Shown piece by piece: positions 32,665 to 48,800 of a DNA stretch of 64,000 nucleotides. Origin of the DNA: JAWCQZ01 sp038869515 [NCBI: Halobacteria archaeon] (GTDB lineage: Archaea > Halobacteriota > Syntropharchaeia > JACQPP01); NCBI GenBank assembly GCA_038869515.1, contig JAWCQZ010000001.1, forward strand, positions 215,079 through 279,078. Reading direction: 5' to 3'. Position 1 is the stretch's first letter. Every line of letters starts with the position of its first letter. The notes under the pieces are model-generated. The model saw only the letters and a program-made list of their open reading frames with translations. It did not search any database and had not been told where the DNA came from. A program made the position numbers and the translations under genes.

Positions 32665-33366
32665 ATGGCCCTCAACTACCGCGCCTGGGTGGCCGAGTCC
32701 ATCGCCGTCTTCGCCCTCGTCTTCTTCGGGACCATGGCCGTCACCGGCGCCATTGACCTCCTCGGCAACAAGACCGCCCCCGACGCGGGGGGCCTCTGGG
32801 TCATCTCCATCGCCCACGGCCTCGCCATCATGCTGATGGCCTTCGCAACGGGCCACATCTCCGGGGGCCACATCAACCCCGCCGTGACAGTGGCGATGAT
32901 GGCGACGAAGAGGCTCGACGCGAAGAACGGCGCCGGATACATCCTGTTCCAATTGATCGGCGCCACGGTCGCCGCCGCGCTCCACGCCGCCATCCTCCCC
33001 GCCTCCCAGTTCCCGCACACGGGGGCCCACGGCCTCAACGCGGCCATCGGCGTCACTCCGGCGACGGGCTTCCTGGTGGAAGTCGCCCTCACCTTCTTCC
33101 TCCTCTTCGTCATCTTCGCCACCGCCGTGGATCCCCGGGCCCCGGCGGGCTTCGCGCCCCTCGCCATCGGCCTCACCATCTGCATGATCCACCTCGTCGG
33201 GGTTCCCCTCACGGGGGCCTCGGTGAACCCCGCCCGCACCTTCGGGCCGGCGCTGGTCTTCGGGGCGTGGGGCGACCACTGGCTCTACTGGGCGGGCCCC
33301 ATCCTCGGGGGGCTCATCGCAGCCCTCCTCTACGACCGGGTCTTCCTGAAGAAGACGGGCGCCTAG
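32665..33366 (+). CDS. Aquaporin (MIP family), water-channel type
   Basis: This 233-residue six-helix channel has both NPA boxes: HINPAVTVAM (N71) and SVNPARTFGPAL (N188) with the selectivity Arg after the second. The helix-5 position carries His176 (ICMIHLVG), as in water-specific AqpZ, so it is predicted to pass water rather than glycerol. It follows the PuuD-like gene by 40 bp and its stop overlaps that of the convergent antiporter gene. Confidence 0.92.
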   Translation: MALNYRAWVAESIAVFALVFFGTMAVTGAIDLLGNKTAPDAGGLWVISIAHGLAIMLMAFATGHISGGHINPAVTVAMMATKRLDAKNGAGYILFQLIGATVAAALHAAILPASQFPHTGAHGLNAAIGVTPATGFLVEVALTFFLLFVIFATAVDPRAPAGFAPLAIGLTICMIHLVGVPLTGASVNPARTFGPALVFGAWGDHWLYWAGPILGGLIAALLYDRVFLKKTGA

Positions 33367-34502
33367 GGCGCCCCCGCGCGCTCCGGGGACCCCTCACGGT
33401 CGGGGGTGTACCACCGCTGGGCGACGAGGGTCGGCACGATGGCGGTGAGGAGGACCGCGGTCACCAGCACGCTGAACTGCTCGCGGCTGACGATTCCCGC
33501 CTGGAGGCCGTAGGTGGAGGAGATGGTGCCGAAGGTCAGGCCGGTGCTCATGAGAAGTGTGGCGTAGATGGCGTCTTTCGGGAGGTAGCGCCGTGCGAGG
33601 GGGAGGACCCCGGCGAACTTGGCCCCGACCTTCACCCCGAAGAGGAGCCCGAGGAGGCCGAGGTTGGCCGCGACCGCGGCGAGGGAGACGTTGAGCCCCG
33701 CGTGCAAGAAGAAGAAGGGGGTGAGGAGGGCGAAGGTGAGCCCCCGGAGGCGCAGGAGGACGCCCCGGTGGCCCTGGAAGGTCCGGGCGGCGATGAGACC
33801 CACCACGTAGGCCGGGAGGACTCCGTGGGACCCCCCGACCTCGGCAGAGAGGCCGAGCAGCAGGACCATGAGGAGGAGCATCTTCAACTCCATCTGGCCG
33901 ACCCCCTCCCGGAACCGGGAGAGGAACCAGTCGAGGAGCCGGGGCACGGCGACCACCGAGACCCCCAGGCCCGCGAATGTCAGGAGGATGAGCCCGTTGG
34001 GCGGAATGAACAGGACGCTGAGCGCAACGGCGGTTCCCAGATCGGTCACGAAGCAGGAGGAGAGGATGAGCTTTCCCGCCGGGGTGGAGGTGAGCCCCGT
34101 CTCCACCAGGACCACGTAGACGACGGCGACTGAGGTCGTGGAGAGGGCCACCCCTGCCAGAAGGGACGCGGCGCGGGTCCATCCGAGAAATCCCTCAGAG
34201 AACCACCACGCTCCCAGAAAGGGGGCACCGAAGGAGGCGACGCCGATGAGGGTGCTTGCCTTCCAGCGGGCCCGGAAGGCGTCGGGGTCGATCTCGGCCC
34301 CGGCCAGGAAGGTGAGGAAGAGCGAACCGAGCCCGGCCAGGAAGGGGAGCCAGTCGTGGCCTGCGGGGGAGAGGCCCGGGACGCTCCCGAGGAGCATCCC
34401 CATGACGATTTCGGCGATGGCGACCGAGACCCCCAGCCGGAAAGAGACGAACGAGGCGGCCAGGGCCGCGGCCAGAAGGGCGATGAGGTAGGGGTCGATC
34501 AT
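33363..34502 (-). CDS. Cation/proton antiporter, CPA2 (KefB/NapA-like)
   Basis: The 379-residue protein has about twelve membrane segments and family features such as GVSVAIAEIVMGMLLG, FLTFLAGAEIDPDAFRA and ALSTTSVAVVY. It would exchange Na+ or K+ for H+. There is no C-terminal nucleotide-binding (TrkA-N) domain. It sits between two aquaporin genes, which suggests, but does not prove, a shared osmotic role. Confidence 0.88.
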   Translation of the reverse strand: MIDPYLIALLAAALAASFVSFRLGVSVAIAEIVMGMLLGSVPGLSPAGHDWLPFLAGLGSLFLTFLAGAEIDPDAFRARWKASTLIGVASFGAPFLGAWWFSEGFLGWTRAASLLAGVALSTTSVAVVYVVLVETGLTSTPAGKLILSSCFVTDLGTAVALSVLFIPPNGLILLTFAGLGVSVVAVPRLLDWFLSRFREGVGQMELKMLLLMVLLLGLSAEVGGSHGVLPAYVVGLIAARTFQGHRGVLLRLRGLTFALLTPFFFLHAGLNVSLAAVAANLGLLGLLFGVKVGAKFAGVLPLARRYLPKDAIYATLLMSTGLTFGTISSTYGLQAGIVSREQFSVLVTAVLLTAIVPTLVAQRWYTPDREGSPERAGAP

Positions 34503-34594
34503 GGGGTTCGCCTGGCGGGGGGGTAGGAGCTATCAGCCCCAGGCGGGGCGGTTGGCGGCGAGCCCCATCGCCTGGGCCCCCCGTGGGCCGCTGG

Positions 34595-34605
34595 AAATAT
34601 AAATT
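34595..34605 (+). promoter_or_regulatory. TATA box of the second aquaporin gene
   Basis: AAATATAAATT lies about 25-30 bp ahead of the ATG at 34628 and is the only AT-rich run in this intergenic region. Confidence 0.7.
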
Positions 34606-34627
34606 CTGCGCGCAGAAGCCCCGCGTC

Positions 34628-35332
34628 ATGGCCACCGCGCTGCGGGCCTGTGTCGCCGAAGCGTTCGGGACCGCGGTCCTGACTCTCTTCGGCTCCCTCT
34701 CGGTGGCGATGGCTGCCCTTCCGGGCTACGCCGCAGGGCCCATTGGCCCCGCTCTGGCCCACGGTCTCGTCATCGCGGTGATGGTCTACGCCATCGGCCC
34801 CGTGTCGGGGTGCTGCATCAACCCCGCCATCACCCTGGCCATGGCGGCCCACGGGAAAATCGGCGGAAAGACCGCCGCACTCTACATCCTGTTCCAACTC
34901 ATCGGGGCCGCGGGGGCGGGCCTCCTCCTCTACGGCTCTCTCCACGGGACTCCCATGGCGGCCCAGACCTACTACGGCGGGAACCGGCCCGACGGCGGGC
35001 TCGGCGTCGGGGAGTTCCAGACCGCCTTCATCGAGGCCTTCGGCACCGCCCTCCTCGCCTTCGCCGTCTTTGCCGTGCCGGGCCGCGCCCCCGCCGGCGT
35101 CGGCGGCTTCGCCATCGGGACGTCGGTCGCGGTCGCGGTCCTGGCGGTCGGGCCCCTCACCGGCGCCTCTCTCAACCCCGCGCGCACCTTCGGCCCCGCC
35201 CTGGTGAGCGCCCTCGCGGGGCTGCCGAACGCACTCCCCGCCCACTGGGCCTACTGGATGGGCCCCATCGCGGGGGCGCTCTTCGGCTCCTTCATCGCCA
35301 TGAGGGTCATCGGCGAGAAGGAGACTCAGTAA
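34628..35332 (+). CDS. Aquaporin (MIP family), AqpM/glycerol-facilitator-like
   Basis: This 234-residue channel has NPA boxes CINPAITLAM (N65) and SLNPARTFGPAL (N183). Compared with the aquaporin at 32665, the helix-5 selectivity His is replaced by Val (position 171) and the sequence around the second box (VGPLTGASLNPARTFGP) resembles AqpM and GlpF. A wider pore able to pass glycerol is therefore possible. Glycerol kinase is encoded at 46814-48259. ATG 34628 follows a TATA box at the right distance. Confidence 0.92.
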   Translation: MATALRACVAEAFGTAVLTLFGSLSVAMAALPGYAAGPIGPALAHGLVIAVMVYAIGPVSGCCINPAITLAMAAHGKIGGKTAALYILFQLIGAAGAGLLLYGSLHGTPMAAQTYYGGNRPDGGLGVGEFQTAFIEAFGTALLAFAVFAVPGRAPAGVGGFAIGTSVAVAVLAVGPLTGASLNPARTFGPALVSALAGLPNALPAHWAYWMGPIAGALFGSFIAMRVIGEKETQ

Positions 35333-35363: not shown

Positions 35364-37031
35364 ATGGCCTCGCAACCCCGTCGCGAGCCGTCCCCTGCTT
35401 CGCACGGGACTGCCCGGTCGGCTCCACCACCCGCCGCCTCCCCGCGCCGCGTCGAGCCGGCATTCGAAATCCTCGCCAAGGACATGGCGGGCCGCTTCGG
35501 CAGGCTCGAGACCCCTCACGGCGTTCTGGAGACCCCCGCCCTCTTCCCGGTGGTGAATCCCCACATCCCCCTCCTTCCTCTCTCTCGAATCCAGGAGTGC
35601 GGGGCCAAGGCCCTCATCACCAACGCATCCATCCTTTTCAAGGACCCGGAGTTGCGGGCCCGGGCCGAGACGGAGGGGGTCCACCGGCTTCTCGGGTTCG
35701 ACGGGCCCGTGATGACCGACTCGGGGGCCTTCCAACTCTCGCGCTACGGCGACGCCGGGGTGACCAACGCCGAGATTGTCGGGTTCCAGAGGCGCATCGG
35801 CGTGGACATCGCGGTTCCCCTCGACCTCCCCACGCCCCCGGACGCCCCCGCGGAAGAGGCGGCCCGCCAGTGGGACGGGACCCTCGCCCGCATTCGCGAG
35901 GCCAAGGAGCTCTGGGACGATGGGCCCGGCTTGCTGGCGATGCCGGTCCAGGGTGGGCTCCACCCCGCCCTGCGGCGCAAAGCCGGTGAAGCGGTGGCGG
36001 CCCTCGGCCCCGGGGTCGCGCCCGTCGGCGCCGTCGTCCCGCTGATGGAATCCCAGCGCTACGCCGACCTGGTGGACGTGGTGGTGGCCGCGAAGCAGGG
36101 CCTCGGCCCCGGAGTCCCGGTCCACCTCTTCGGCGCGGGCCACCCGGCCACCTTCCCGCTGGCCGCGGCCCTCGGGTGCGACCTCTTCGACTCCGCCTCC
36201 TACGCCCTCTACGCCAAGGAGAGGCGCTACATGACGCCGACCGGGACGCTCCGCCTCGACGAGGTGCGGGAGCTGCCGTGCGCCTGCCCGGTCTGCGCCT
36301 CCCGCGGGCCCGGGGACCTCGACGGGGCGCTGCTGGCGGAGCACAACCTGCGGGCGACCCTCGCGGCGGTCCGGGAGGTGCGGCAGGCGATCCGCTCCCA
36401 CGCCCTGCCCGACCTGGTGGAGATGCGCTGCCGGAGCCACCCCGCCCTCCTGGCGGGCTACCGGAGGCTCCTGGAGGAGCACGGCGACTGGCTGGAGCGG
36501 AACCACCCGAACGGTCCCGAGCCCTTCCACCACCGGGGCCCCGAGTCGGCCCTCCGGCCCGAGATCCGGCGACACCTCCGCTCGATGGCCCGGTGGCCCC
36601 TGAAGGGGCACATCCTGGTGACCTGCTTTCCAACCGAAGCGGGGGGAGGGGTCAAGCGGGCGCCACCTGCGGCTGCGCCCGGCAGCGAAGAGCAGAGCGA
36701 GACCCGCAACGCGACCCCGCTCCACAGCGGAAGACGAACGTCGCGGGCCGAGAGGGGGGCTTCGCCCCGCTCCCCGGGTCCTTCGTTCGACCGCGTCCTG
36801 ACTCTCAAGCCCCTCTTCGGCCCCGTTCCCCCGGAGCTGGAGGAGAGCGCCCCCGCGGGCCAGGCCCTTCTCCTGGAGGATCGGGAGTCGTGGCGGGCGG
36901 CCCTGGAGAGCCTCTGGGCCCTCATGGAGGCGCGGCCCGAGGTGCGGTGGACCATCCACGGGCCCGCCTCCTGGGAGCCGGCGTGGGTGGAGAGGCTCGA
37001 GGGGCGCGCGGAGGTGGTCCTGCGTGGCTAG
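35364..37031 (+). CDS. tgtA: tRNA-guanine(15) transglycosylase (archaeosine), TgtA
   Basis: TgtA exchanges G15 of tRNAs for preQ0. Visible are the catalytic Asp119 in VMTDSGAFQ, GAVVPLMES, the zinc site in ELPCACPVCAS and DLFDSASYALYA. A Pro/Ser/Arg-rich insertion at about residues 425-472 (DNA 36640-36780), between the catalytic part and the C-terminal domain, looks repeat-derived. The first 30 residues are also low complexity, so the start may be later. It overlaps arcS by 8 nt, forming a tgtA-arcS operon. Confidence 0.93.
   Translation: MASQPRREPSPASHGTARSAPPPAASPRRVEPAFEILAKDMAGRFGRLETPHGVLETPALFPVVNPHIPLLPLSRIQECGAKALITNASILFKDPELRARAETEGVHRLLGFDGPVMTDSGAFQLSRYGDAGVTNAEIVGFQRRIGVDIAVPLDLPTPPDAPAEEAARQWDGTLARIREAKELWDDGPGLLAMPVQGGLHPALRRKAGEAVAALGPGVAPVGAVVPLMESQRYADLVDVVVAAKQGLGPGVPVHLFGAGHPATFPLAAALGCDLFDSASYALYAKERRYMTPTGTLRLDEVRELPCACPVCASRGPGDLDGALLAEHNLRATLAAVREVRQAIRSHALPDLVEMRCRSHPALLAGYRRLLEEHGDWLERNHPNGPEPFHHRGPESALRPEIRRHLRSMARWPLKGHILVTCFPTEAGGGVKRAPPAAAPGSEEQSETRNATPLHSGRRTSRAERGASPRSPGPSFDRVLTLKPLFGPVPPELEESAPAGQALLLEDRESWRAALESLWALMEARPEVRWTIHGPASWEPAWVERLEGRAEVVLRG
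36640..36780. repeat. Repeat-like GC palindromic insertion within tgtA
   Basis: The segment contains GAAGCGGGGGGAGGGGTCAA, a Gly/Ala/Ser-coding spacer with the inverted pair CTGCGGCTGCGC, CTCCACAGCGG, and the hairpin GGGGGGCTTCGCCCC near its end. It encodes a low-complexity tract absent from normal TgtA architecture. It resembles families A and B in composition and hairpin style, but I cannot align it fully to either. Confidence 0.45.
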
Positions 37032-38751
37032 GCCGCCGCCGGCGTTCGAGGTGGTGCGGAGGGACGGCCCCGCCCGCCTCGGGAGGCTCCGCCTCGACGG
37101 GACCTCGCTCCCCACTCCGGGCATCCTCCCGGTCTCCCGGACCCCCTGGATGGGGGAGTTCCGGCGCCGCTGGCAGTTCCGCGGCGAGGAGGCCTTCGAA
37201 GCCGGAGGGCTCCGGGTCTCCACCTCCCCCCGGGCCGAGGCCGACCTCTACCTCCTCCCCAAGTCGCGGGCCCTGGAGGGGCGCCCGCGGAGGTTCATGG
37301 AGGGGGTGGCGGAGTTCCGGGAGGCGGTCGGCCCGGACGGGGCGCTCTACCTGCCGGCCCTCGCCACGCCCGCGAACGCCGCGCTCCTCGCCTACGCGGG
37401 CGTCGACCTGGTGGACGATGTCCAGCCGCTCCTCGCGGCCCGCCAGGGGCTCTACATGACGCCGGCCGGCAGCCGCCCCCTCGGCGGGATGGAGGAGATG
37501 CCCTGCCCCTGCGACGCCTGTCGCCGGGGGGAGGGGGTTCGCGTAGGCGACGGCCCCCTCCCCCCGCCCACAGGCCCGCCCCCCGCCCCCCCCTCAAGGA
37601 TGGACGCCGAGGCCCTGGCGCGCCACAATACGACCGCCCTGGAGATGGAGCTGCGGGCCGCGCGCGCCGAAATCCGCCGGGGGCGGATGCGGGAGCGCGC
37701 CGAGGAGCGGGTCCGGGCCGAGGCGTGGCAGGTGGCGGCCCTGAGGAACTTCGACGCCCAGGGGAGCTACCTGGAGCGGAGGAGCCCGGTGAGCCGGGAG
37801 GCGCGCCTCGACGCCAACTCCATGGAGTCGCTCTTCAGGCCCGAGGTCCGCCGGTTCGCCGCGCGGGTCCGGGAGCGGTTCACCCCCGCGCCGGGACCCT
37901 GGGTCCTCCTCCCCTGCTCCGCCCGGAAGCCCTACTCCAACTCCCAGAGCCACCGGAGGTTCCGGCGCGCCCTGGAGCCGTGGCGCGGCTCCCTGCAGGA
38001 GGTGGTCCTGACCTCGCCCCTCGGGGTCGTCCCGCGGGAGCTGGAGCGGACCTACCCGGCGGCCCACTACGAGACGCCGGTGACCGGAAGGTGGGACGGG
38101 GAGGAGCGCCTGTGGCTCCAGGAGTGCCTTCGGCCGCTCCTCGAGAAACACCGCCCCCCGCTCCTCTTCATCCACATCCCCGGGACGCCCGGGGAGGTGG
38201 CGCGGGAGGAGGGGCGGAGGCTCGGAATCGAGACCGTCGAGACCGCCGGGGCCGACCCGGCCGGCGACGCGGCCCTCCAGGCGCTCCACAACGCGGTCGC
38301 CTCGGCGGGCCTCCCGAGGGCGCCCCACCGCCTCGGGCGCCACCTCCGGGCCGTGGCCGATTTCCAACTCGGCCCGGGGGCGGGGGAGCTCCTGATGAAG
38401 CACGGGAAGCCCACGATGCGGGGCGCGCGGTCGGGGCCCCCGGTGGCTGCGATCCGGAGCGTGGCGACGCTGACCCCGTCGGGGCTCCTCGCCCTCACCC
38501 TGAAGGGGGCCCGCGCCCTCGCCGGCGCGAGGTGGCCCGGACTGCGGGTCGAGATCGACGACTTCCTCCCCACCGGCTCGGTCCTCGCCCCGGGGGTGAC
38601 CCGGGCCGACGAAGCCCTCCGGCCGGGCGACGAGGCGGTCTTCGAGGGGCCCCGCGCCTTCGGGGTCGGGAAGGCCGCCATGGCGGGGTGGGAGATGGAG
38701 CGCGCCCGCCGGGGGGTCGCGATCCGGGTCCGGGAAGTGGAGCCGAAATAG
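37024..38751 (+). CDS. arcS: Archaeosine synthase ArcS
   Basis: ArcS converts preQ0-15 in tRNA towards archaeosine. The N-terminal half is a TGT-like fold without catalytic Asp (EEMPCPCDACRRG zinc site). The core motif LLPCSARKPYSNSQSHRRF lies near residue 297, and the C-terminal PUA domain reads VEIDDFLPTGSVLAPGV and DEAVFEGPRAFGVGKAAM. It starts with GTG inside tgtA. Residues about 165-190 (GEGVRVGDGPLPPPTGPPPA) are the translation of family B copy B5, placed in a linker between the TGT-like part and the rest. Confidence 0.93.
   Translation: MARPPPAFEVVRRDGPARLGRLRLDGTSLPTPGILPVSRTPWMGEFRRRWQFRGEEAFEAGGLRVSTSPRAEADLYLLPKSRALEGRPRRFMEGVAEFREAVGPDGALYLPALATPANAALLAYAGVDLVDDVQPLLAARQGLYMTPAGSRPLGGMEEMPCPCDACRRGEGVRVGDGPLPPPTGPPPAPPSRMDAEALARHNTTALEMELRAARAEIRRGRMRERAEERVRAEAWQVAALRNFDAQGSYLERRSPVSREARLDANSMESLFRPEVRRFAARVRERFTPAPGPWVLLPCSARKPYSNSQSHRRFRRALEPWRGSLQEVVLTSPLGVVPRELERTYPAAHYETPVTGRWDGEERLWLQECLRPLLEKHRPPLLFIHIPGTPGEVAREEGRRLGIETVETAGADPAGDAALQALHNAVASAGLPRAPHRLGRHLRAVADFQLGPGAGELLMKHGKPTMRGARSGPPVAAIRSVATLTPSGLLALTLKGARALAGARWPGLRVEIDDFLPTGSVLAPGVTRADEALRPGDEAVFEGPRAFGVGKAAMAGWEMERARRGVAIRVREVEPK
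37518..37593. repeat. Family B element, copy B5 (inside arcS)
   Basis: It begins CTGTCGCCGGGGGGAGGGGG, identical to copies B3 and B4 over the first bases. It has a G-run/C-run hairpin and ends CCACAGGCCCGCCCCCCGCC. It is read in frame on the plus strand within the arcS linker. Confidence 0.8.
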
Positions 38752-38753
38752 GG

Positions 38754-38963
38754 TCAGGCCTTCGCGGCCTTCCCCTTCTTGGGTCCGCGGCCGGGGGCCT
38801 TCCGGACCCACGTCATGCGCCTCGCGATGCGCCCCAGGGCGAGGTTCTTCTCGCACTTCGAGGAGCAGAAGTAGAAGAGGGAGCCGTCGCGCCTCACCAG
38901 CATCTTCCCGGTCCCGGGCTCGAACGGCTGGGCGCAGAAGGAGCAGGTCTTCCAGTCTGGCAC
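38754..38963 (-). CDS. rpl24e: Ribosomal protein eL24
   Basis: The 69-residue protein has the zinc-binding CSFCAQPFEPGTGKMLVRRD and FYFCSSKCEKN motifs of eL24. A basic tail (RGPKKGKAAKA) follows. It ends the L7Ae-S28e-L24e operon, 10 bp downstream of eS28, and converges on arcS. Confidence 0.95.
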   Translation of the reverse strand: MPDWKTCSFCAQPFEPGTGKMLVRRDGSLFYFCSSKCEKNLALGRIARRMTWVRKAPGRGPKKGKAAKA

Positions 38964-38973
38964 GGGGGGACTC

Positions 38974-39189
38974 CTACCGGGAGAGGAGCTTCTTCGCCTC
39001 CCGGGCGGTCTCCATCAGGATGAGGACGTCGCCGACCTGAACCGGGCCGTAGCAGTTCCGGGTGATCACCATGCCGCGGCTCTGGCCTTCCAGGACCCTC
39101 ACCCGCACCTGGGTCACCTCGCCGTGCATGCCGGTCCGTCCCACCACCTCGACCACCTCGGCGGGGGAGGGGGCCTCCTCGGCCGGCAT
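38974..39189 (-). CDS. rps28e: Ribosomal protein eS28
   Basis: The 71-residue OB-fold protein shows [40 protein letters not shown] and [17 protein letters not shown]. This is the canonical eS28 pattern. It lies between L7Ae (6-bp gap) and eL24 in the usual archaeal order. Confidence 0.95.
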
Positions 39190-39195
39190 CGCCCC

Positions 39196-39597
39196 TCAGG
39201 ACTCCTTGGCCCCTTCGCCGCCCTTCTTCAACCTGGCCAGCCCCTTCAACGCGTCGTCGAAGGCGGCCTTCGCCTTGGCCCCCGAGTCGAGGATGGCCGC
39301 GCCGGCGCACGACTTGGCGGTGAGGCCGCACGCCTTGCCGAGGTCCTCCTGCTTCTTCACGTAGCCGTAGGGGACCTTCTTCTCCTCGCAGAGGGCGGGG
39401 AGGTGCATCGCCACCTCGGGGGGGTCCACATCCTCGCTCACGACGACCAGCTTCGCGAGGCCCCGCTCCACCGACTTGGTGGTCTCGTTGATGCCCTTCT
39501 TCAGCTTCCCGGTCTCCTTGACCTCGGCCAGGAGCTCCAGGAGCGAGTTCTCCAGGGCCGGAGGGACGTCGAACTTCACATGGGGCGACTTGGCCAT
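39196..39597 (-). CDS. rpl7ae: Ribosomal protein eL8 / L7Ae (kink-turn binding)
   Basis: L7Ae is a ribosomal protein and shared core of box C/D and H/ACA RNPs. Seen are KKGINETTKSVERGLAKLVV, the EDVDPPEVAMHLPALCEEK loop and VPYGYVKKQEDLGKACG. At 133 residues it has a slight C-terminal Lys/Gly-rich extension. ATG 39597 is preferred over 39606 because the TATA box (GGTATAAAG on the plus strand, 39621-39629) then lies at the right distance. It is divergent from the ubiquitin-like operon. Confidence 0.95.
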   Translation of the reverse strand: MAKSPHVKFDVPPALENSLLELLAEVKETGKLKKGINETTKSVERGLAKLVVVSEDVDPPEVAMHLPALCEEKKVPYGYVKKQEDLGKACGLTAKSCAGAAILDSGAKAKAAFDDALKGLARLKKGGEGAKES

Positions 39598-39691
39598 GGG
39601 ACCCATGAGACCCCCCGCCGGGTATAAAGTTTCAGAGGCGGGGGGACGGAAACGGTTAAAATTGGGGCGGCGACCTCCCCCGCGGCCACCC
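39598..39691. promoter_or_regulatory. Divergent promoters for the L7Ae operon and the ubiquitin-like operon
   Basis: Two TATA-like boxes face away from each other: ACTTTATACC on the minus strand (39621-39630) for rpl7ae, and GTTAAAATTGG on the plus strand (39655-39665), about 30 bp ahead of the ATG at 39692. Sharing a 94-bp region with a ribosomal operon suggests the ubiquitin-like module may be constitutively expressed. Confidence 0.65.
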
Positions 39692-40045
39692 ATGGAGGAG
39701 CCCCGTCTCGACGCCCTCGAACATCGAATCCGGGCCCTGGAGGCCCGCCTCCGCGCAGTGGAGGGGCGCCTCTCCTCCTCCCTCGGAGGGGCGATCGAGG
39801 GGGCCCCGCCGGGTCCCGGGGAGGCCCCGCAGGGCGCGGACGGGGAGGCGCTGCGGGAGCGGCTCCAGGGGCTGGGGGAGAGGGTCTACGCCCTGGAGGC
39901 CCACGCCCCCGCGCGGATGGCCGAAGCGCTCCTGCGGGTCGAGGCGCGCCTGGCGGAGCTGGAGCGCTCCCGGGCGGAGGCGGCCGCGGCCCCTGCTCCC
40001 CCGGCGGGGGGGCGCTCCCGGGGCCGGGGTCTCCGGCTCCTCTAG
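39692..40045 (+). CDS. Coiled-coil protein, first gene of the ubiquitin-like operon
   Basis: The 117-residue protein has heptad-like helices (LDALEHRIRALEARLRAVEG near the N-terminus, later LRERLQGLGERVYALEAHA and ALLRVEARLAELERSRAEA). A Gly/Pro linker separates them and the C-terminus is basic (GGRSRGRGLRLL). No cysteine or known domain is present. It lies 2 bp ahead of the E1 gene, so it is almost surely co-transcribed. It could be an adaptor, scaffold or substrate; this is inference from position. A TATA box precedes it. Confidence 0.7.
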   Translation: MEEPRLDALEHRIRALEARLRAVEGRLSSSLGGAIEGAPPGPGEAPQGADGEALRERLQGLGERVYALEAHAPARMAEALLRVEARLAELERSRAEAAAAPAPPAGGRSRGRGLRLL

Positions 40046-40047
40046 CC

Positions 40048-41124
40048 ATGGCCGGGAGGGGGGGACGCTACGACCGCCTCCGCGCCCTCGCGGGGTACGA
40101 CCGGGAGCGTCTCGCCTCCTCGACCTTCCTCGTGGCCGGGGTCGGCGCCCTCGGCAACGAGGTGGCGAAGGACCTCGCCCTCCTCGGCGCGGGGCGGCTC
40201 CTCCTGGTGGACTTCGACCGGGTCGAGCCCTCCAACCTCTCCCGCTCGCTCCTCTTCCGGGAGGCGGACGTCGGGCTCCCGAAGGTCCGGGCGGCCGCGC
40301 GCGCCCTGCGCAACATCAACCCCGGAGCCGAAGTGGAGGCGGTCGAGGGGGACCTCCGGTGGGACCTCGGCCTCGGGACCCTCCGCCGCTGCGCCGTGGC
40401 CTTCGGGTGCCTGGACAACCGGGAGGCGCGCCTCGCCCTCAACCGCATGTGCCGCTCTGCGGGGGTCCCGTGGGTGAACGGGGGGCTCGACGGCTGGGAC
40501 GGCGTGGTCGAGCTCTACCCGCCCCGGGGCGCCTGCTACGAGTGCTCCTTCACCGGGGCTGACTACGCGGCGGTCGCGGAGCGCTACTCCTGCCCGGCCC
40601 GTCCGCCGGCAGCGGGAGGCGTCCCCACCGCCCCCACTGCGGCCGCCATCGTGGGCGGGATGGCGGTCGAGGCGGGGCTCTTCGCCCTCCCGCGCGAGGC
40701 GGAGGCGCTCTACTACCGCGGCGGAGAGGTGGTCCGCTCCCGCCTCCAGCGGAGGCCCGGCTGCCCCGCCCACCATGCCCCGGGGCCGGTGAAGAGGTCG
40801 GGCCTGACGCCGGAGAGCCGGGTCCGGGAGTTGCTGGCGGCCCATCCGGGGACCCTCTTCCTCGACCGGGAGGTGGTCACCGCCCTCCGCTGCCTCTGCG
40901 GGCGGGGCCGGCGCCTCCGGGTCCCGCGCCTCCGGATGGACGGCGCCCTCCGCTGCCGGTGCGGCCGGGAGATGGCTTCCGAGACGGTGCGACGGGTCGG
41001 GACGGGGGACCCGCTGGCGGAGCGCTCCCTGAAGGAGTTGGGAATCCCGCCGGGCCATATCGTCGAGGTGGCCCGGGGGAACCGGTCCGTGTTCGTGGAG
41101 TTGAAGGAGGGCCGCCGTGGGTAA
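40048..41124 (+). CDS. Ubiquitin-activating-type E1 with UBA3-like catalytic Cys and C-terminal UFD-like domain
   Basis: The 358-residue ThiF/E1-fold protein should adenylate a ubiquitin-like C-terminus and take it as thioester. The nucleotide loop GVGALGNEVAKDLALLGAG is at residues 31-49, then LVDFDRVEPSNLSRSLLF (53-70), K79, and GCLDNREAR (120-128). A zinc pair C163/C166 (ACYEC) is followed by C182 in YSCPA, placed as the catalytic Cys of eukaryotic UBA3. PGCPAHH (237-243) replaces the second zinc pair. An additional CLCG...CRCG ribbon spans 282-306. The tail RSLKELGIPPGHIVEV (326-341) resembles the ubiquitin-fold, E2-recruiting tail of UBA3. MoeB/ThiF enzymes lack such a tail. It overlaps the Ubl-E2 gene by 8 nt. 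Confidence 0.88.
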   Translation: MAGRGGRYDRLRALAGYDRERLASSTFLVAGVGALGNEVAKDLALLGAGRLLLVDFDRVEPSNLSRSLLFREADVGLPKVRAAARALRNINPGAEVEAVEGDLRWDLGLGTLRRCAVAFGCLDNREARLALNRMCRSAGVPWVNGGLDGWDGVVELYPPRGACYECSFTGADYAAVAERYSCPARPPAAGGVPTAPTAAAIVGGMAVEAGLFALPREAEALYYRGGEVVRSRLQRRPGCPAHHAPGPVKRSGLTPESRVRELLAAHPGTLFLDREVVTALRCLCGRGRRLRVPRLRMDGALRCRCGREMASETVRRVGTGDPLAERSLKELGIPPGHIVEVARGNRSVFVELKEGRRG

Positions 41125-41899
41125 ACTGGTCGTCGAGGTCGTGGACCACACCGCCTCCCGGCGGCGGAAGGCGGAGATTCCCGACTCGATGACCGCGGAG
41201 CGCGTCCTCGCAACGCTCGTGGAGAAAATGGGACTCCCCGCGGCGGACCCGGCGGGCCAGCCCATCACCTACCACCTCGACCACAAGCAGTCGGGCAAGA
41301 GGCTGAGGCCGGACCAGACCCTCAAGCAGGCGGGGGTCCAGAACGGCGACGTGCTGCGGGTCTTCCCGCGCATCGAGGCTGGCGCACCCTCCGGCGGACC
41401 CTCACCGCGCCTGCGCCGCCTGAAGAACGAGAGGCTCCGGCTGGGACGGCTCCGCTCCCCCCTCGTCACTTTCCGGACCGGGGGGGACCCGCCCGACGAG
41501 TACCGGGTGGAGTTTCTCTGCACGGGGCTGGCGAAGTCGGACGGAAAGATGGAGAGGCGAGGGCGCCACGAGGCGCACATCCTCCTTCCCGCCGACTACC
41601 CCGTGCGGCCTCCGGAGGTCCGGTGGCTCACGCCGCTGTTCCATCCCAACATCCTCGGGAGCGACCACCCCTACCACCCGGGAAAGGTCTGCCTCGGCCC
41701 CTGGACGCCCGCCCAGTTTTTGGACGACGTCGTGGTCCGCCTCGCCGAGATGGTGCAGTTCAAGGACTACGGCCTCCAGAGCCCGCTGAACCCCGAGGCC
41801 GCCGTGTGGGCGAAGGAGCACGAGGCGGAACTGCCGGTGGACCCGAGGGAGGTCCGGGAGCCCCAGGCGCGGGGGGAGGACATCGCGATTCTGGAGTAG
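41117..41899 (+). CDS. Ubiquitin-like domain fused to an E2 ubiquitin-conjugating (UBC) domain
   Basis: The 260-residue protein starts with GTG inside the E1 gene. Residues 1-85 form a beta-grasp ubiquitin-like domain of YukD/EsaB style (KLVVEVVDHTASRRRKAEIP, ..TLKQAGVQNGDVLRVFP). After a Gly/Pro linker, residues 97-245 match a full E2 fold: helix RLRRLKNERLRL, PPEVRWLTPLFHPNI with the HPN triad at 176-178, catalytic Cys192 in GKVCLGPWTP, and PLNPEAAVWAKEH. All residues needed for E2 chemistry appear present. The Ubl is internal and has no terminal Gly-Gly, so it is probably a recruitment or regulatory domain. The conjugated modifier must be encoded elsewhere, or the system acts on another tail. 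Confidence 0.88.
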   Translation: MGKLVVEVVDHTASRRRKAEIPDSMTAERVLATLVEKMGLPAADPAGQPITYHLDHKQSGKRLRPDQTLKQAGVQNGDVLRVFPRIEAGAPSGGPSPRLRRLKNERLRLGRLRSPLVTFRTGGDPPDEYRVEFLCTGLAKSDGKMERRGRHEAHILLPADYPVRPPEVRWLTPLFHPNILGSDHPYHPGKVCLGPWTPAQFLDDVVVRLAEMVQFKDYGLQSPLNPEAAVWAKEHEAELPVDPREVREPQARGEDIAILE

Positions 41900-41921
41900 G
41901 CCTGTGCTCTGCGGCCCCTGC

Positions 41922-42782
41922 TCAGAAGATTGAAAATGATAATCCGTCCCCCATCCTTTCAAGGAACCCCTCCACCAACCTCGCCAGTTCCCCCGGCCTC
42001 TCCACCGACGGCAGGTGGCCGCACTCCTCGATGATTTCGAGCCGCGCCCCCGGGATGGTCCGCGCGAGCCGCTCCCCGAGTTTCAGCGACACCAGTCTGT
42101 CCTGCCGCCCCCACACCACCAGCGTCGGGGCGCGGATTTCGGCCGCCCGCTTCCGGTAACTGGTCGCGATGACGTGCATCATCGAGTTGAACCGGGTCCG
42201 TCGCCGCGCCCGCTCCTTCGGGTCCTCCCGCAACGCGGCGGCCCGCGCCTTCATCTCCTCGATGCCGGGGCGGTGGTCGTGGAAGGCGCGCTTCATCATG
42301 GAGCGCCCGATGACCGGCTCGAGCGCCTTGTAGATGGCGAAGGCGAAGTCGCTGCGGGCGCGCCTCCGGGCGAACCCCCGGGGGCGCCACATGCCCCCGG
42401 AATCGACCAGGACGAGCGCCTCGACCCGCTCGGGCCACCGGAGGGTGAACTCCATCGAGACCATCCCCCCCATCGAGGAGCCGACCGGGACCGCGCGTCG
42501 CACCCCGATGGAGTCGAGCAGTTGGAGCGCCGAGCGGGCGAAGAACTCCAGGGTGTAGTCGGTGACCGGCACCTCCGATTGCCCGTAGGAGGGCAGGTCC
42601 ACCGCGACGCAGCGCCACTTCTTCGACAATCGCTCCACCACCGCGCTCCACTGCTCGTGGGTCGAGGCCCAGCCGTGGAGGAAGAGGAGGGCGTCGGCGT
42701 CGCGCGGCCCTTCATCCACGTATGCGAGCCGGAAGGGGGGTGGGCCCGGGAGGTCGGCGAATTTGACCTGGAACCCGGCCAC
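41922..42782 (-). CDS. Alpha/beta hydrolase
   Basis: The 286-residue alpha/beta-hydrolase-fold protein has the oxyanion segment FLHGWASTHEQW, nucleophile elbow VGSSMGGMV, the acid Asp in LVVWGRQDRLVS and His in EECGHLPSVE. The substrate is unknown; esterase or C-C hydrolase families share this pattern. It converges on the ubiquitin-like operon with a 22-bp gap. The queE stop is immediately upstream, so it may be the last gene of the que operon. Confidence 0.85.
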   Translation of the reverse strand: MAGFQVKFADLPGPPPFRLAYVDEGPRDADALLFLHGWASTHEQWSAVVERLSKKWRCVAVDLPSYGQSEVPVTDYTLEFFARSALQLLDSIGVRRAVPVGSSMGGMVSMEFTLRWPERVEALVLVDSGGMWRPRGFARRRARSDFAFAIYKALEPVIGRSMMKRAFHDHRPGIEEMKARAAALREDPKERARRRTRFNSMMHVIATSYRKRAAEIRAPTLVVWGRQDRLVSLKLGERLARTIPGARLEIIEECGHLPSVERPGELARLVEGFLERMGDGLSFSIF

Positions 42783-43415
42783 TTACACGCCTCGCCGGTC
42801 GCCCCAAAGAATCTTGTGCAATTGCAGCCCGTAGCGCGCCCCGGGGAACTCCGTCTTCACCCGTTCCGCGAATTCGAACTTCGAGTAGCAGTCCTTCTGC
42901 AGAATCAGGTTCGGGAGGTGGGCCCACTCCTTGGCGAAGGCGAGGTCCTCCGGCCCGCTCACCACGATTTTGAACTGGACCTTGGACCCGTGCTCGCGGA
43001 GGATGCGGCCGACGGCTTCCCGGTTGGGCGCGACGCCGCTGCTCGGCCCCTTGACGTCGCAGGAGACGAAATCCACGGCCGTCATCACTTCGGGCTCGAA
43101 GTATTGTCCGCTCGTCTCGAGGCAGACCCAGTAGCCCCGCTCCTTCAGGAGCCGGACCAGCCTCCGGATGTCCTGCTCGAGAGGCTCGCCGCCGGTGATG
43201 GAGACCCGCCGGCAGGGGAAGGCGGCCACGCGCCCCAGGACCTCCTCCTCGGTGAGGGCCGCCGAGCCCTTCGCCCTCTCGGGCCAGGTGTACTTGGTGT
43301 CGCACCAGGAGCAGCCGACCCTGCACCCCTGGAGCCGGATGAAGACCTGGGGGAGGCCCATGTGAAGCCCTTCGCCCTCCAGGCTGTGGAAAATCTCCGA
43401 AATCCGCAGGGCCAT
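42783..43415 (-). CDS. queE: 7-carboxy-7-deazaguanine synthase QueE
   Basis: This radical SAM enzyme rearranges 6-carboxytetrahydropterin to CDG in preQ0 synthesis. The modified cluster motif CRVGCSWCDTKYTWPE, SLEGEGLHMG at the N-terminus, VSITGGEPLEQ and the ending YGLQLHKILWG match the family. At 210 residues it is normal. The start shares a base with the queC stop (TGATG). The product feeds TgtA/ArcS, encoded 6 kb away. Confidence 0.94.
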   Translation of the reverse strand: MALRISEIFHSLEGEGLHMGLPQVFIRLQGCRVGCSWCDTKYTWPERAKGSAALTEEEVLGRVAAFPCRRVSITGGEPLEQDIRRLVRLLKERGYWVCLETSGQYFEPEVMTAVDFVSCDVKGPSSGVAPNREAVGRILREHGSKVQFKIVVSGPEDLAFAKEWAHLPNLILQKDCYSKFEFAERVKTEFPGARYGLQLHKILWGDRRGV

Positions 43416-44104
43416 CAGCGGCCCCTCCCGCTGGCCAGGAGCGGGTCCTCGACGCCCGCCTCCTCGAACCCCTTCGCCCGCAAGAGGCAGGAGTCGCAGC
43501 GGCCGCAGGGGCGCGCCCCCCCGGCGTAGCAGGACCAAGTGAGATGGAAAGGGACGCCGAGGGCGAGCCCCCTCCGCACGATCTGGGCCTTCGTCATCCC
43601 GATGACCGGCGTCCAGATTCCGAGCGGCCTCCCCCCGGCGCCGCGCTTCGAGCCGAGGGCGATGGCCCGGGCCATGGCCCGGTAGTATTCGGGGCGGCAG
43701 TCGGGGTAGTGGGAGTAGTCCACCGCGTTCGCCCCCAGGACCAGCCGGTCGGCCGCCGCGACTTCGGCGCGGGCGGCGGCGAGCACCAGGAAGATGGTGT
43801 TCCGGAGGGGGACGTAGGTGCTCGGGATGCGCGGGTCGCGCAGGATCTCCCGCGCGCTCCGGCGGCGCTCCAGGGGGAGGCGGGCGGTGAGCGCGCTCCC
43901 GCCGATCTGCCGCAGGTCGACCCTCAGGACCCCGTGGCTCCGCGCCCCGAGGGCCCGCGCCACCGCCCGGGCCGACCGCAGCTCGCGCCGGTGGCGCTGG
44001 CCGTAGTCGAAGGAGAGGGCGTGGAGCTCGCCCCCCCGGGCGCGGGCGATGGCGGCCGCGACCGCCGAGTCCATGCCGCCCGAGAGGAGGCAGAGGGCCT
44101 TCAC
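43415..44104 (-). CDS. queC: 7-cyano-7-deazaguanine (preQ0) synthase QueC
   Basis: QueC converts CDG with ammonia and ATP to preQ0. It has the PP-loop LLSGGMDSAVAAA near the start, SFDYGQRHRREL, VPLRNTIFL and the zinc site SCYAGGARPCGRCDSCLLR (four Cys) near the C-terminus. It starts with GTG at 44104 within a GTGA overlap of the RHH/zinc-ribbon gene. QueD and the GTP cyclohydrolase are not in the window. Confidence 0.95.
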   Translation of the reverse strand: MKALCLLSGGMDSAVAAAIARARGGELHALSFDYGQRHRRELRSARAVARALGARSHGVLRVDLRQIGGSALTARLPLERRRSAREILRDPRIPSTYVPLRNTIFLVLAAARAEVAAADRLVLGANAVDYSHYPDCRPEYYRAMARAIALGSKRGAGGRPLGIWTPVIGMTKAQIVRRGLALGVPFHLTWSCYAGGARPCGRCDSCLLRAKGFEEAGVEDPLLASGRGR

Positions 44105-46821: not shown

Positions 46822-48259
46822 CCCCTCTCCAGGCCCGGACAACCTCTAAAGCCCTCCGCCACCGGGCCCGCTCCCGGGCGCGCGGGAAGCCCCGCCGGGG
46901 TCGGAACCCCCGCTCCGCCCGGACCCGGTTCCGGGCCTCCCCGGCGTCCCACATCCCCGCCTCCAGCCCCGCCAGGAGCCCGACCCCCAGGGCGGTGGCC
47001 TCGGCCTCCGCGCTCCGGAGGACCGGAACTCCCAGAATGTCGGCCTGCATCTGCATCCAGAGGGCGTTCCGGGAGCCTCCGCCCCCGGCCCGGAGGGAGC
47101 GGAGGGGGACCGCGCGCCCCATCACTTCGGCCCCGTCGGCGACCCGGTGGGCCACTCCTTCGAGGACCGCCCGGACGATCTGCCCCCGCGCCGTCGCGCG
47201 GCTCAACCCGAGGAGTGCCCCGCGGGCCTCCGGGTCCCAGTGGGGCGCGCCGAGGCCCGAGAGGGCGGGCACGAAGAGCACCTCGCCGGAGTCGGGGACC
47301 TGGCGGGCCACCCGCTCCGACTGGCCGGCGGCCTCGAGGAGCCCGACGTTGTCCCGCAGCCACCGGAGCGCGTCGCCCGCGGTGAATATGGAGGCCTCGA
47401 GGCAGTAGGCGGGCCGGCCGGGCCGCTCCCACGCGACCGAGGCGGCCAGTCCAGGGACCGGTTTCGGCTTGGGCCCGGTGTTCGCCAGCAGGAACGCCCC
47501 GGTCCCGTAGGTGCACTCCGCCTCCCCGGGGCGCCAGCAGCCGTGGCCGAAGAGGGAGGCCTGCTGGTCCCCGAGGACCGCGGCGACCGGAACCCCCCCG
47601 ACCTCCCCGAAGGGGCCGGTGCTGGGGCGGACCTCCGGGAGCAGGTCCTCAGGGACCCCGAAGAGGTCGAGCAGGCCGTGGTCCCACCGACGAGTCCGGA
47701 GGTTGAGCAGGAGCGTCCGGGACCCGTTGCTCGGCTCGGTCGCGTGGAGCCCGGCAAGCCGGTCGAGGAGCCAGGCGTCCACCGTCCCGAACCGGAGGCG
47801 GCCCCTCCGGGCGTCGCGGCGGAGATCCGCGTCGCGCAGGAGAAGGGCGAGTTTGGTGGCGGAGAAGTAGGGGTCCACAGGGAGGCCGCTCCTCCGCCGG
47901 ACCCACTCCCGCCTCCGCGACGGCATCGCGGCGCAGAACCCCGCGCTCCTCCGGTCCTGCCACACCACCGCCCGGGTCCGGGGGCGGCCTCCGGGCTCCC
48001 AGAGGAGAAAGGTCTCCCGCTGGTTTGTGAGGCCGAGGGCCCGCACCCTGACCCCCCGGCGCCGGGCCTCCGCCAGGGCGCGCCGGAGGACCCGCCGGCT
48101 CTTCGCCTCGATCTCCCGAGGGTCCTGCTCCGCCCTCCCCGGGGTGGGGGTGCGGAGCGCCAGTTCGAGGGCGGCCCCGGCCGCCACCTTGCCCCGCGCG
48201 TCGAACACCAGCGCCCGGGTGGAGGTGGTGCCCGCGTCGAGGACGGCGACCCCCTCCAT
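46814..48259 (-). CDS. glpK: Glycerol kinase (FGGY family)
   Basis: GlpK phosphorylates glycerol to sn-glycerol-3-phosphate. The phosphate-1 motif LDAGTTSTRALVFD is at the N-terminus, followed by LTNQRETFLLWE, EPSNGSRTLLLNL (glycerol-kinase-specific region), GDQQASLFGHGC, YGTGAFLLANTG and APHWDPEARGALLGL. The 481 residues are close to the usual 490-500. ATG 48259 overlaps the stop of the upstream pilin-like gene. A possible glycerol channel is encoded at 34628. Confidence 0.92.
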   Translation of the reverse strand: MEGVAVLDAGTTSTRALVFDARGKVAAGAALELALRTPTPGRAEQDPREIEAKSRRVLRRALAEARRRGVRVRALGLTNQRETFLLWEPGGRPRTRAVVWQDRRSAGFCAAMPSRRREWVRRRSGLPVDPYFSATKLALLLRDADLRRDARRGRLRFGTVDAWLLDRLAGLHATEPSNGSRTLLLNLRTRRWDHGLLDLFGVPEDLLPEVRPSTGPFGEVGGVPVAAVLGDQQASLFGHGCWRPGEAECTYGTGAFLLANTGPKPKPVPGLAASVAWERPGRPAYCLEASIFTAGDALRWLRDNVGLLEAAGQSERVARQVPDSGEVLFVPALSGLGAPHWDPEARGALLGLSRATARGQIVRAVLEGVAHRVADGAEVMGRAVPLRSLRAGGGGSRNALWMQMQADILGVPVLRSAEAEATALGVGLLAGLEAGMWDAGEARNRVRAERGFRPRRGFPRARERARWRRALEVVRAWRGDG

Positions 48260-48741
48260 CAGCGGATGAGGAGCCGGAGGGCATAGAGGTTCTCGAACTC
48301 CCGGTAGCACCCAGGGGCGGAGGCGGTCAGTTTCAGGTGCCCCTCCTCCCGATCCTCGGCCACGAGGCGGGCCCAGACCGGGAGGGGGTCGATGAGGAGG
48401 GTGGCGTTCCCCTGTCCGTCGGTCCGGTTCGCGGCGGCGGTCCCGGGGCCGGCGGACCCCGCGCCCGTCAGGACCACCGTGGCGTCGCGGACCCCCTGCC
48501 CTTGGGCTGTGACCCGGACCCCGATTTGGGCGGGCCGGCTCCCCCGGAGGAGGTCGCCGGCTTTCCCGTCCACCGACACCACCTCGGCGGCCAGCGGGGC
48601 CGGGACTGCGCAGGAGGGGAGGGCGGAGAGGAGGGCGGCGAGGCCTGCGACGCCGACCACGGTGAGGACGGCGAGTTTCAACGGGAGGTCGAGGGCGGCG
48701 CCGTCATCCCTGCGGAGGGTGTCGACTCGCGTCGGAGGCAT
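48259..48741 (-). CDS. Pilin-like secreted beta protein A
   Basis: The 160-residue protein has an N-terminal charged stretch, then RRDDGAALDLPLKLAVLTV and a single hydrophobic helix (to about residue 44). After this comes a secreted beta-rich domain with APLAAEVVSVDGKAGDLLRG and VRDATVVLTGAG. The pattern D-D/E-x-x-x-(E/D)-LP-x-x-hydrophobic is shared with the proteins at 48801 and 59038. It resembles archaeal type IV pilin-like signal regions, but no canonical cleavage site is certain. ATG 48741 excludes the upstream family B element. Confidence 0.6.
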   Translation of the reverse strand: MPPTRVDTLRRDDGAALDLPLKLAVLTVVGVAGLAALLSALPSCAVPAPLAAEVVSVDGKAGDLLRGSRPAQIGVRVTAQGQGVRDATVVLTGAGSAGPGTAAANRTDGQGNATLLIDPLPVWARLVAEDREEGHLKLTASAPGCYREFENLYALRLLIR

Positions 48742-48742
48742 G

Positions 48743-48799
48743 AGGGGGAGGGGGCGGGCCTGTCGACGGGGGATGGGGACTCCGTCCCCCCCGGAGACA
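48743..48799. repeat. Family B element, copy B6 (minus orientation)
   Basis: Read on the minus strand it starts CTGTCTCCGGGGGGACGGAG directly after the stop of the upstream gene and ends GTCGACAGGCCCGCCCCC just before the start of the next. It fills the whole gap between the two pilin-like genes. Confidence 0.75.
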
Positions 48800-48800
48800 G

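What the first reader, a model, noticed from the sequence alone, without database searches (positions are those of the whole stretch)
39692..41899. Compact archaeal ubiquitin-like conjugation operon: coiled-coil protein, UBA3-like E1, Ubl-E2 fusion
Three genes lie with a 2-bp gap and an 8-nt overlap. The E1 has adenylation motifs (GVGALG at 31-36, D54, CLDN), a UBA3-positioned Cys182, and a tail (RSLKELGIPPGHIVEV) resembling the eukaryotic UBA3 E2-binding fold. The next gene encodes a complete E2 with HPN at 176-178 and Cys192. Known prokaryotic E1/E2 systems (Caldiarchaeum, bacterial Bil/CBASS-type) have other gene orders. I know of no described system with an internal Ubl-E2 fusion and a small coiled-coil partner in a Thermoplasmatota-like genome. 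That absence is from memory, not a search.
Basis: partly seen in the sequence, partly recalled or inferred. Interest (0 to 1): 0.93.

Follow-up and report, generated by a model that had tools for sequence, protein, structure and literature searches.

The report
Archaeal ubiquitin-like protein-tagging operon
A small operon in an uncultured archaeon appears to encode a stripped-down version of the ubiquitin protein-tagging system, with the tag and the enzyme that attaches it made as one fused protein.

Summary
Window 39692-41899 (+) carries three tightly packed intact ORFs: a 117-aa coiled-coil protein, a 358-aa E1-type ThiF adenylyltransferase, and a 260-aa fusion of a YukD-type ubiquitin-like (Ubl) domain to a ubiquitin-conjugating (E2) domain. 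E1 and E2 keep the expected key residues. The host is archaeal, nearest to genome G001. G156, a genome in G001's class, has E1, Ubl and E2 orthologues unfused on three contigs. Four of 44 genomes of a Caldarchaeia-type class carry a distant Ubl-E2 fusion beside a JAMM peptidase gene. In small unrooted trees, window and G156 enzymes lie with those, apart from canonical archaeal ones. Most likely this is a minimal E1-E2 conjugation cascade. Whether the linker (GG at residues 93-94) is cut to free the modifier or the fusion stays whole is open: no JAMM motif was found in the window, and G156's separate Ubl lacks GG. 'UBA3-like' is too specific; the E1 has a compact MoeB/ThiF/UBA5 layout plus an uncharacterised cysteine-containing tail. 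New variant of a known kind.

The parts
39656..39663 (+). TTAAAATT, BRE/TATA-like element about 30 nt before the first ATG
   Evidence: sequence; one of two A/T runs of 6 or more in 39000-43000. Promoter reading is inference
39692..40045 (+). 117-aa coiled-coil protein (P0001), first ORF of the operon; role unknown
   Evidence: only sub-threshold coiled-coil matches; codon score 18, weak; heptad-like Leu/Ile spacing read from the sequence
40048..41124 (+). 358-aa E1-like ThiF adenylyltransferase (P0002). GVGALG at 31-36, SNLSR at 62-66, K79, D123, CYEC 163-166, candidate catalytic C182 (RYSC), C239/H242; C-terminal tail about 252-358 with CLCG and CRCG motifs
   Evidence: orthologue in G156 44% over 4-353. 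Roles of residues are by family knowledge
41117..41899 (+). 260-aa Ubl-E2 fusion (P0003), GTG start, overlapping the E1 gene by 8 nt
41117..41374 (+). Ubl domain, YukD type, beta-grasp (residues 1-86)
   Evidence: Pfam YukD 1.7e-13; model elements E3-10, E15-22, H27-38, E49-56, E79-86; 55% identical to a separate Ubl gene in G156
41375..41404 (+). linker, residues 87-96, with GG at 93-94 (bases 41393-41398)
   Evidence: residues 88-94 have pLDDT under 50; positions
41405..41899 (+). E2 (UBC) domain, residues 97-260; HPN at 176-178, candidate catalytic C192 (KVCLGPW)
   Evidence: Pfam UQ_con 4.4e-10; PDB E2s; 49% identical to G156 E2

Best explanation
The operon encodes a minimal ubiquitin-like conjugation cascade in which the modifier and its E2 are translated as one protein. 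Step 1: the compact E1 adenylates the C-terminus of the Ubl and takes it as a thioester on Cys182. Step 2: the Ubl is passed to Cys192 of the E2. Step 3: the E2 attaches it to targets, the coiled-coil protein possibly serving as adaptor or scaffold. For the Ubl to be activated its C-terminus must be free, so the most likely extra step is cutting in the disordered linker after GG93-94 by a JAMM-type peptidase encoded elsewhere. Shown here: gene structure, domains, residues, relatives, co-occurrence of E1, Ubl and E2 in G156. Inferred: every catalytic step, the cut, the role of the coiled-coil protein.
For: Domain matches above curated cut-offs for E1, Ubl and E2. Invariant E1 nucleotide-site, CxxC and C182 positions across eight aligned E1s, three of them from canonical archaeal Ub clusters. 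HPN and catalytic-type Cys kept in the E2 and shared with G156 and the distant fusions. Model: beta-grasp, low-confidence linker, UBC-type domain, with E2 structures dominating the PDB matches. G156 keeps orthologues of all three domains on three contigs, and the E1 tail profile finds only G156 among 392 genomes, so the parts travel together. In the class of G395, 4 of 44 genomes have an uninterrupted full-length Ubl-E2 fusion; each of the four fetched loci has a JAMM gene next to it and 3 of 4 have an E1 there; their Ubl ends ...VPRPVGG. Caldiarchaeum Rpn11 cuts a ubiquitin fused to the N-terminus of GFP (PMC5654768, passages seen).
Against: No JAMM motif in any of the six frames of the window, though the pattern found it in all 5 loci given as positive controls; none of 52 different window proteins scanned by Pfam is a JAB protein (8 of the 58 ORFs called were not scanned). 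GG93-94 lies 7-8 residues beyond the last Ubl strand and is followed by proline, and G156's separate Ubl ends ...ITAGAGRVGPAPIKPDYAATLH without GG. The only JAB match in G156 is on another contig, and such genes are common (7 of 14 control genomes over the cut-off). The fusion with these close relatives is known in this one contig; the G395-class fusions are only 25-26% identical.
Confidence: 0.5

Rival explanations
1. The fusion is permanent. The fused Ubl is not the tag but a docking domain that recruits E1, a partner or a substrate, and the real modifier is a different Ubl encoded elsewhere; the E2 domain still works as an E2.
For: No peptidase found in the window; no GG in the G156 Ubl and proline right after GG in the window. 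A partial precedent: Ubl domains fused to inactive E2-like domains are reported in bacterial polyUbl operons (PMC1779556, passages).
Against: In G156 the orthologous Ubl is a separate gene, so it does not need the E2 in cis; the E2 here keeps its HPN and Cys, unlike the inactive ones.
Confidence: 0.27
2. A sulfur-carrier or tRNA-modification system: the E1 makes a Ubl thiocarboxylate, and the genes serve tRNA modification like their neighbours.
For: The operon lies between TGT-family and DUF5591+PUA genes on one side and radical-SAM and QueC genes on the other, an archaeosine-type cluster; the best NCBIfam matches of the E1 are ThiF, MoeB and UbaA.
Against: Those scores are far under the cut-offs (ThiF 117 of 275, UbaA 89.5 of 450 bits). 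Sulfur carriers need no E2 (established knowledge). In G156 the ORFs around the same genes do not look like such a cluster (reading; neighbours not scanned by Pfam).
Confidence: 0.1
3. A defence module related to bacterial Bil or CBASS E1-E2 systems, acquired by transfer.
For: The ThiF domain matches PADLOC E1-E2 and BilD models (best 4.5e-16); Citrobacter BubCD structures are among the structural matches.
Against: Those matches cover only the shared ThiF domain and the Ubl-E2 protein matches no PADLOC model; no plasmid or phage record matches it; Pfam names of the neighbours are housekeeping-like (PADLOC was run on the three operon proteins only); composition is like the surroundings.
Confidence: 0.06
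4. A decaying or non-functional relic.
For: Rare: 1 of 58 held genomes of the class of G156 and G001 has the E2.
Against: All three frames are open, codon bias is strong for E1 and Ubl-E2, and key residues are kept.
Confidence: 0.04

Closest known systems
   Same: Orthologous E1 including the cysteine-containing tail (44%), Ubl (55%), E2 (49%)
   Different: Ubl and E2 are separate genes on different contigs; no coiled-coil ORF of 80 aa or more directly before its E1; no GG in the Ubl tail
Ubl-E2 / JAMM cluster of Caldarchaeia-type genomes (L098, L134, L135, L136; class name recalled, L049 of the same genome as L098 is titled Candidatus Calditenuaceae)
   Same: N-terminal Ubl fused to a catalytic-type E2; compact E1 (262-264 aa from the starts that I chose) in 3 of 4 loci, 39-43% identical over about 206-218 residues
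   Different: 25-26% identity over the fusion, adjacent JAMM gene, pilin-like genes around (reading of sequence), E1 without the long tail, Ubl ends VGG, Ubl nearer to ubiquitin than to YukD in Pfam though under the cut-offs
Caldiarchaeum / Asgard ubiquitin operons (PMC5654768, passages; L099, L101, L102)
   Same: Ub/Ubl, E1 and E2 encoded together; E2 catalytic Cys
   Different: Separate Ub and E2 genes; E1s of L099 and L101 have a long insert after the Cys (L102 does not); published ones come with JAMM and small RING proteins; separate branches
UBA5, MoeB and ThiF
   Same: Compact adenylation enzyme with a short cysteine-containing crossover region; with MccB the best Foldseek matches
   Different: Extra C-terminal tail of about 107 residues; partner E2 is of the ordinary UBC type
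Bacterial operons 6a-6e, including polyUbl fused to inactive E2-like domains (PMC1779556, passages)
   Same: E1, E2-like and Ubl parts in compact operons, with fusions
   Different: Listed for bacteria, usually with JAB; their Ubl-E2 fusions carry an inactive E2-like domain

Membership tests
E1/ThiF superfamily | ThiF fold with nucleotide-site motifs | tested here: met
   Pfam 5e-45; invariant G31, G33, D55, D57, N63, R66, K79, D123; Z 25 to 21.5 with known E1-type structures in the 50 rows shown
E2 / UQ_con | UBC fold, HPN tripeptide, catalytic Cys | tested here: met
   Pfam 4.4e-10, above cut-off; HPN 176-178, C192; model and Foldseek
YukD-type Ubl | YukD profile match above cut-off | tested here: met
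   51.6 bits against 27; G156 Ubl 45.8 bits
YukD of WXG100 / type VII secretion | Secretion genes nearby | tested here: inconclusive
   None among the 52 different window proteins scanned by Pfam, but 8 of the 58 ORFs were not scanned
Canonical archaeal ubiquitin operon (Caldiarchaeum/Asgard) | E1 with long insert after the Cys | tested here: not met
   Alignment of six E1s: insert present in L099 and L101, absent in the window. L102, an Asgard E1, lacks it too, so the feature is not strict
Canonical archaeal ubiquitin operon (Caldiarchaeum/Asgard) | Rpn11/JAMM peptidase in or beside the cluster | tested here: not met
   No JAMM motif in six frames of the window; found in all 5 control loci given
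Canonical archaeal ubiquitin operon (Caldiarchaeum/Asgard) | Small RING protein | tested here: inconclusive
   Pattern found none in the window, but also none in the 5 control loci, so it proves nothing
Canonical archaeal ubiquitin operon (Caldiarchaeum/Asgard) | Groups with canonical E1s and E2s in a tree | tested here: not met
   Separate with 100/99 support for E1 (8 rows) and 93/95 for E2 (10 rows, below the program's star); unrooted, few rows
Canonical archaeal ubiquitin operon (Caldiarchaeum/Asgard) | Modifier with processable C-terminal GG | tested here: inconclusive
   GG93-94 in the linker, but G156 has none; cleavage not testable here
SAMP / UbaA system | E1 above the UbaA equivalog cut-off | tested here: not met
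   89.5 of 450 bits
Bil / CBASS E1-E2 defence | Full-length match to defence E1-E2 or Bil proteins | tested here: not met
   Partial ThiF-domain matches only; none for the Ubl-E2 protein at E up to 1
UBA3 (NEDD8 E1 catalytic subunit) | Closest to UBA3 among E1s | tested here: not met
   Sequence ranks UBA7, UBA1, MoeB, UBA5 and SAE2 above UBA3; structure leaves SAE2, ThiF, MoeB, UBA3 and UBA5 within 2 Z units

The most novel reading that the evidence does not exclude
A second archaeal ubiquitin-like conjugation family, separate from the Caldiarchaeum/Asgard ubiquitin system, in which the modifier and its own E2 are born as one polypeptide, shared by a euryarchaeal-type lineage and Caldarchaeia, and able to work with a compact E1 alone.
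Probability: 0.3. Interest if true: 0.78.

Novelty: new variant of a known kind. Interest (0 to 1): 0.6.

Why it matters
In the papers looked at here, E2-based ubiquitin-like systems in archaea are described from Caldiarchaeum-type and Asgard lineages. A 2010 paper says in its introduction that no archaeal E2-like protein had been detected (PMC2948915, passage), and a 2014 survey lists for Euryarchaeota one genome with a UCH DUB and RING-type proteins (PMC4327156, passage). A compact E1 plus Ubl-E2 fusion in a different lineage, with a relative that has the same parts unfused, gives a test case for how modifier and E2 became linked and how little is needed for conjugation.

Tried and rejected
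UBA3-like label: rejected as too specific. Conserved neighbourhood with L7Ae: rejected; in 80 L7Ae loci (flanks of varying length) tblastn at E up to 0.01 found no match to the Ubl-E2 or coiled-coil protein, and an E1 match only in L006 and L009, at 29-30%. G228 Ubl match (4.8e-4): its frame looks like a nucleotide-sugar dehydrogenase and was taken as chance. G026 and G324 E2 matches are below the cut-off and contain stops; left aside. Matches that span Ubl and E2 with stops between (G455, G454, G449; G528, G457) are read as neighbouring separate genes and were not used. The E1 tail: low-confidence model (most of 244-358 under pLDDT 50), weak FeoA match (0.023); fold not decided. Weak PADLOC match of the coiled-coil protein to LmuB (0.013) taken as coiled-coil cross-matching. 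The RING pattern found nothing in its own control loci. The first scan of genome contigs and both viral-contig scans found no relative. No mention of such a fusion in archaea was seen in the listings or in the passages and one section read; supplements and most subscription journals were not searched.
Full report
What is there. The window holds three intact, same-strand ORFs at exactly the reported place. P0001 (39692-40045, 117 aa) is a coiled-coil-type protein. P0002 (40048-41124, 358 aa) starts 2 nt later. P0003 (41117-41899, 260 aa) starts at a GTG that overlaps the end of P0002 by 8 nt, with a GGAGG stretch just before it (sequence). Upstream lies the divergent L7Ae/S28e/L24e group, downstream a convergent alpha/beta hydrolase. 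The only two A/T runs of 6 or more between 39000 and 43000 are TATAAA at 39623, placed for L7Ae, and TTAAAATT at 39656, placed for P0001; this supports P0001 as the first gene, by inference. G+C of 40001-42000 (0.731) is like that of the neighbouring stretches (0.732 and 0.709).

Are they real genes? Codon and GC3 signals are strong for P0002 and P0003 and weaker for P0001. Pfam gives ThiF for P0002 and YukD plus UQ_con for P0003, all above the curated cut-offs; P0001 has only sub-threshold coiled-coil matches. P0001 is the least certain member.

The E1. The nucleotide-site residues, the CxxC pair, C182 and C239 are invariant in eight aligned E1s: window, G156, three from Caldarchaeia-type fusion clusters, one canonical from such a genome, two Asgard. 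C182 is the candidate thioester cysteine by position. The protein lacks the long insert after that cysteine seen in L099 and L101; L102 lacks it too. PDB sequence searches rank UBA7/UBA1, MoeB, UBA5 and SAE2 above UBA3. Foldseek lists UBA5, ThiF, MccB and MoeB first, and VIA-align gives Z 25.1 for SAE2, 24.1 for ThiF, 24.0 for MoeB, 23.5 for UBA3, 23.4 for bacterial BubCD and 23.1 for UBA5, over model residues up to about 252. The tail (about 252-358) has four cysteines in CLCG and CRCG motifs, of which C282, C284 and C305 align with cysteines of G156. Its two sequences are 36% identical, and its profile finds only G156 among 392 genomes of the phylum-level group of G001. Its fold is not resolved.

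The Ubl-E2 protein. The AlphaFold2 model (mean pLDDT 74.9, pTM 0.55, seven-row alignment) shows a beta-grasp domain to residue 86, a stretch 88-94 under pLDDT 50, and a UBC-type domain from residue 97. The PDB matches shown are mostly E2s such as UBE2D, RAD6 and UBE2G2, with a few ubiquitin or SUMO chains matching the Ubl part. HPN (176-178) and C192 are kept.

Relatives. A search of 392 genomes of the phylum-level group of G001 found one credible relative, G156, with E2 49%, Ubl 55% and, E1 44% over residues 4-353. These are on contigs C29, C131 and C160; the Ubl and E2 are separate genes. The E2 family PF00179 is above cut-off in 1 of 392 of these genomes, and the E2 profile matches 1 of 58 of the class that holds both G156 and G001. 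Of 20 other archaeal genomes tried (20 of the 80 behind the L7Ae loci) PF00179 was above cut-off in 2, and in none of 14 controls: G394, an Asgard-type genome (Jordarchaeia in its title), and G395, titled Calditenuaceae. G395 has a canonical-type cluster (L099) and a second cluster (L098) with E1, a pilin-like gene, a Ubl-E2 fusion and a JAMM gene. In its class all 44 held genomes match the profile; 4 (G395, G423, G424, G422) have an uninterrupted full-length Ubl-E2 fusion, and 3 of these 4 also show a separate E2 match (all but G424). All four fetched loci have the JAMM gene next to the fusion; E1 is at the locus in L098, L134 and L135 but was not found in the 11 kb of L136. Among 227 genomes of the phylum of G394, at E up to 1e-12, 31 match and none shows an uninterrupted fusion. 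Plasmid and phage collections gave no match to P0003.

Trees. With 8 E1 rows, window and G156 pair (99/97) and lie with the three Caldarchaeia-type fusion-cluster E1s, against the canonical and Asgard E1s (100/99). With 10 E2 rows, window and G156 pair (99/98) and the same split has 93/95 support, below the program's star. Both trees are unrooted, small, without bacterial or eukaryotic rows, and one E2 row (L100) is a very long branch. They suggest, but do not prove, common descent of the two fusion systems; the fusion itself could have arisen twice, since G156 has none and the fusions share only 25-26% identity.

Host. The nearest L7Ae (73%) is in L001, a 'Euryarchaeota archaeon' MAG whose isolate name says groundwater, and the nearest LysRS is in the same genome, G001 (75% over residues 12-265; other matches shown at most 53%). 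G001 has no match to P0003, but its completeness is not known. No genome is held for the window itself, so its class is inferred.

How it probably works. Established knowledge of E1-E2 systems plus the kept residues point to adenylation, E1 thioester, E2 thioester, conjugation. The question peculiar to this protein is how the Ubl C-terminus gets free. The precursor model is supported by the low-confidence (probably flexible) linker with GG, by the neighbouring JAMM genes and VGG ends of the Caldarchaeia-type fusions, and by the published cutting of an N-terminal ubiquitin-GFP fusion by Caldiarchaeum Rpn11 (PMC5654768, passages). Against it stand the absence of a JAMM motif from the window, the proline after GG, and the lack of GG in the G156 Ubl. 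I put the whole precursor model at 0.5 and a permanent fusion at 0.27; that some E1-E2 Ubl chemistry takes place I would put near 0.8.

Neighbourhood. The operon sits inside an archaeosine-type gene group: TGT-family and DUF5591+PUA genes before it, radical-SAM and QueC genes after it (the names tgtA, arcS, queE and the pathway are recalled). This keeps a tRNA-modification rival alive, at low weight, because the ORFs around the G156 genes do not look alike.

Verdict. It is a new variant of known ubiquitin-like conjugation systems.

Noticed in passing
L098:4742-7521, L134:3095-5869, L135:3678-6544, L136:5232-6531: Caldarchaeia-type genomes carry a second Ubl-E2 fusion cluster with a JAMM gene, among pilin-like genes (reading of sequences); 3 of these 4 genomes also have a separate E2 match.
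   Followed up: partly
window 35364-44047: TGT-family, DUF5591+PUA, radical-SAM and QueC genes surround the Ubl operon: an archaeosine-type cluster interrupted by L24e/S28e/L7Ae, the operon and a hydrolase.
   Followed up: partly
L134:8076-8396: Small cysteine-rich, RING-like protein near the fusion cluster; the first cysteine pair of a RING looks incomplete (reading of sequence).
   Followed up: no
window 51119-51931: PAC2-family protein (3.2e-36), a family linked to proteasome assembly (passage calls PAC2 a proteasome assembly chaperone); about 9 kb from the operon.
   Followed up: no
window 48259-49292: Two adjacent short proteins with a pilin-like hydrophobic N-terminal segment (reading of sequence) and no Pfam match at the limits used.
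   Followed up: no
window 5884-8727: 947-aa protein with a C-terminal PGF-CTERM sorting signal, in a stretch of lower G+C than its surroundings.
   Followed up: no
window 32665-35332: Two aquaporin-type (MIP) genes within 2.7 kb, with a Na/H exchanger gene between them.
   Followed up: no
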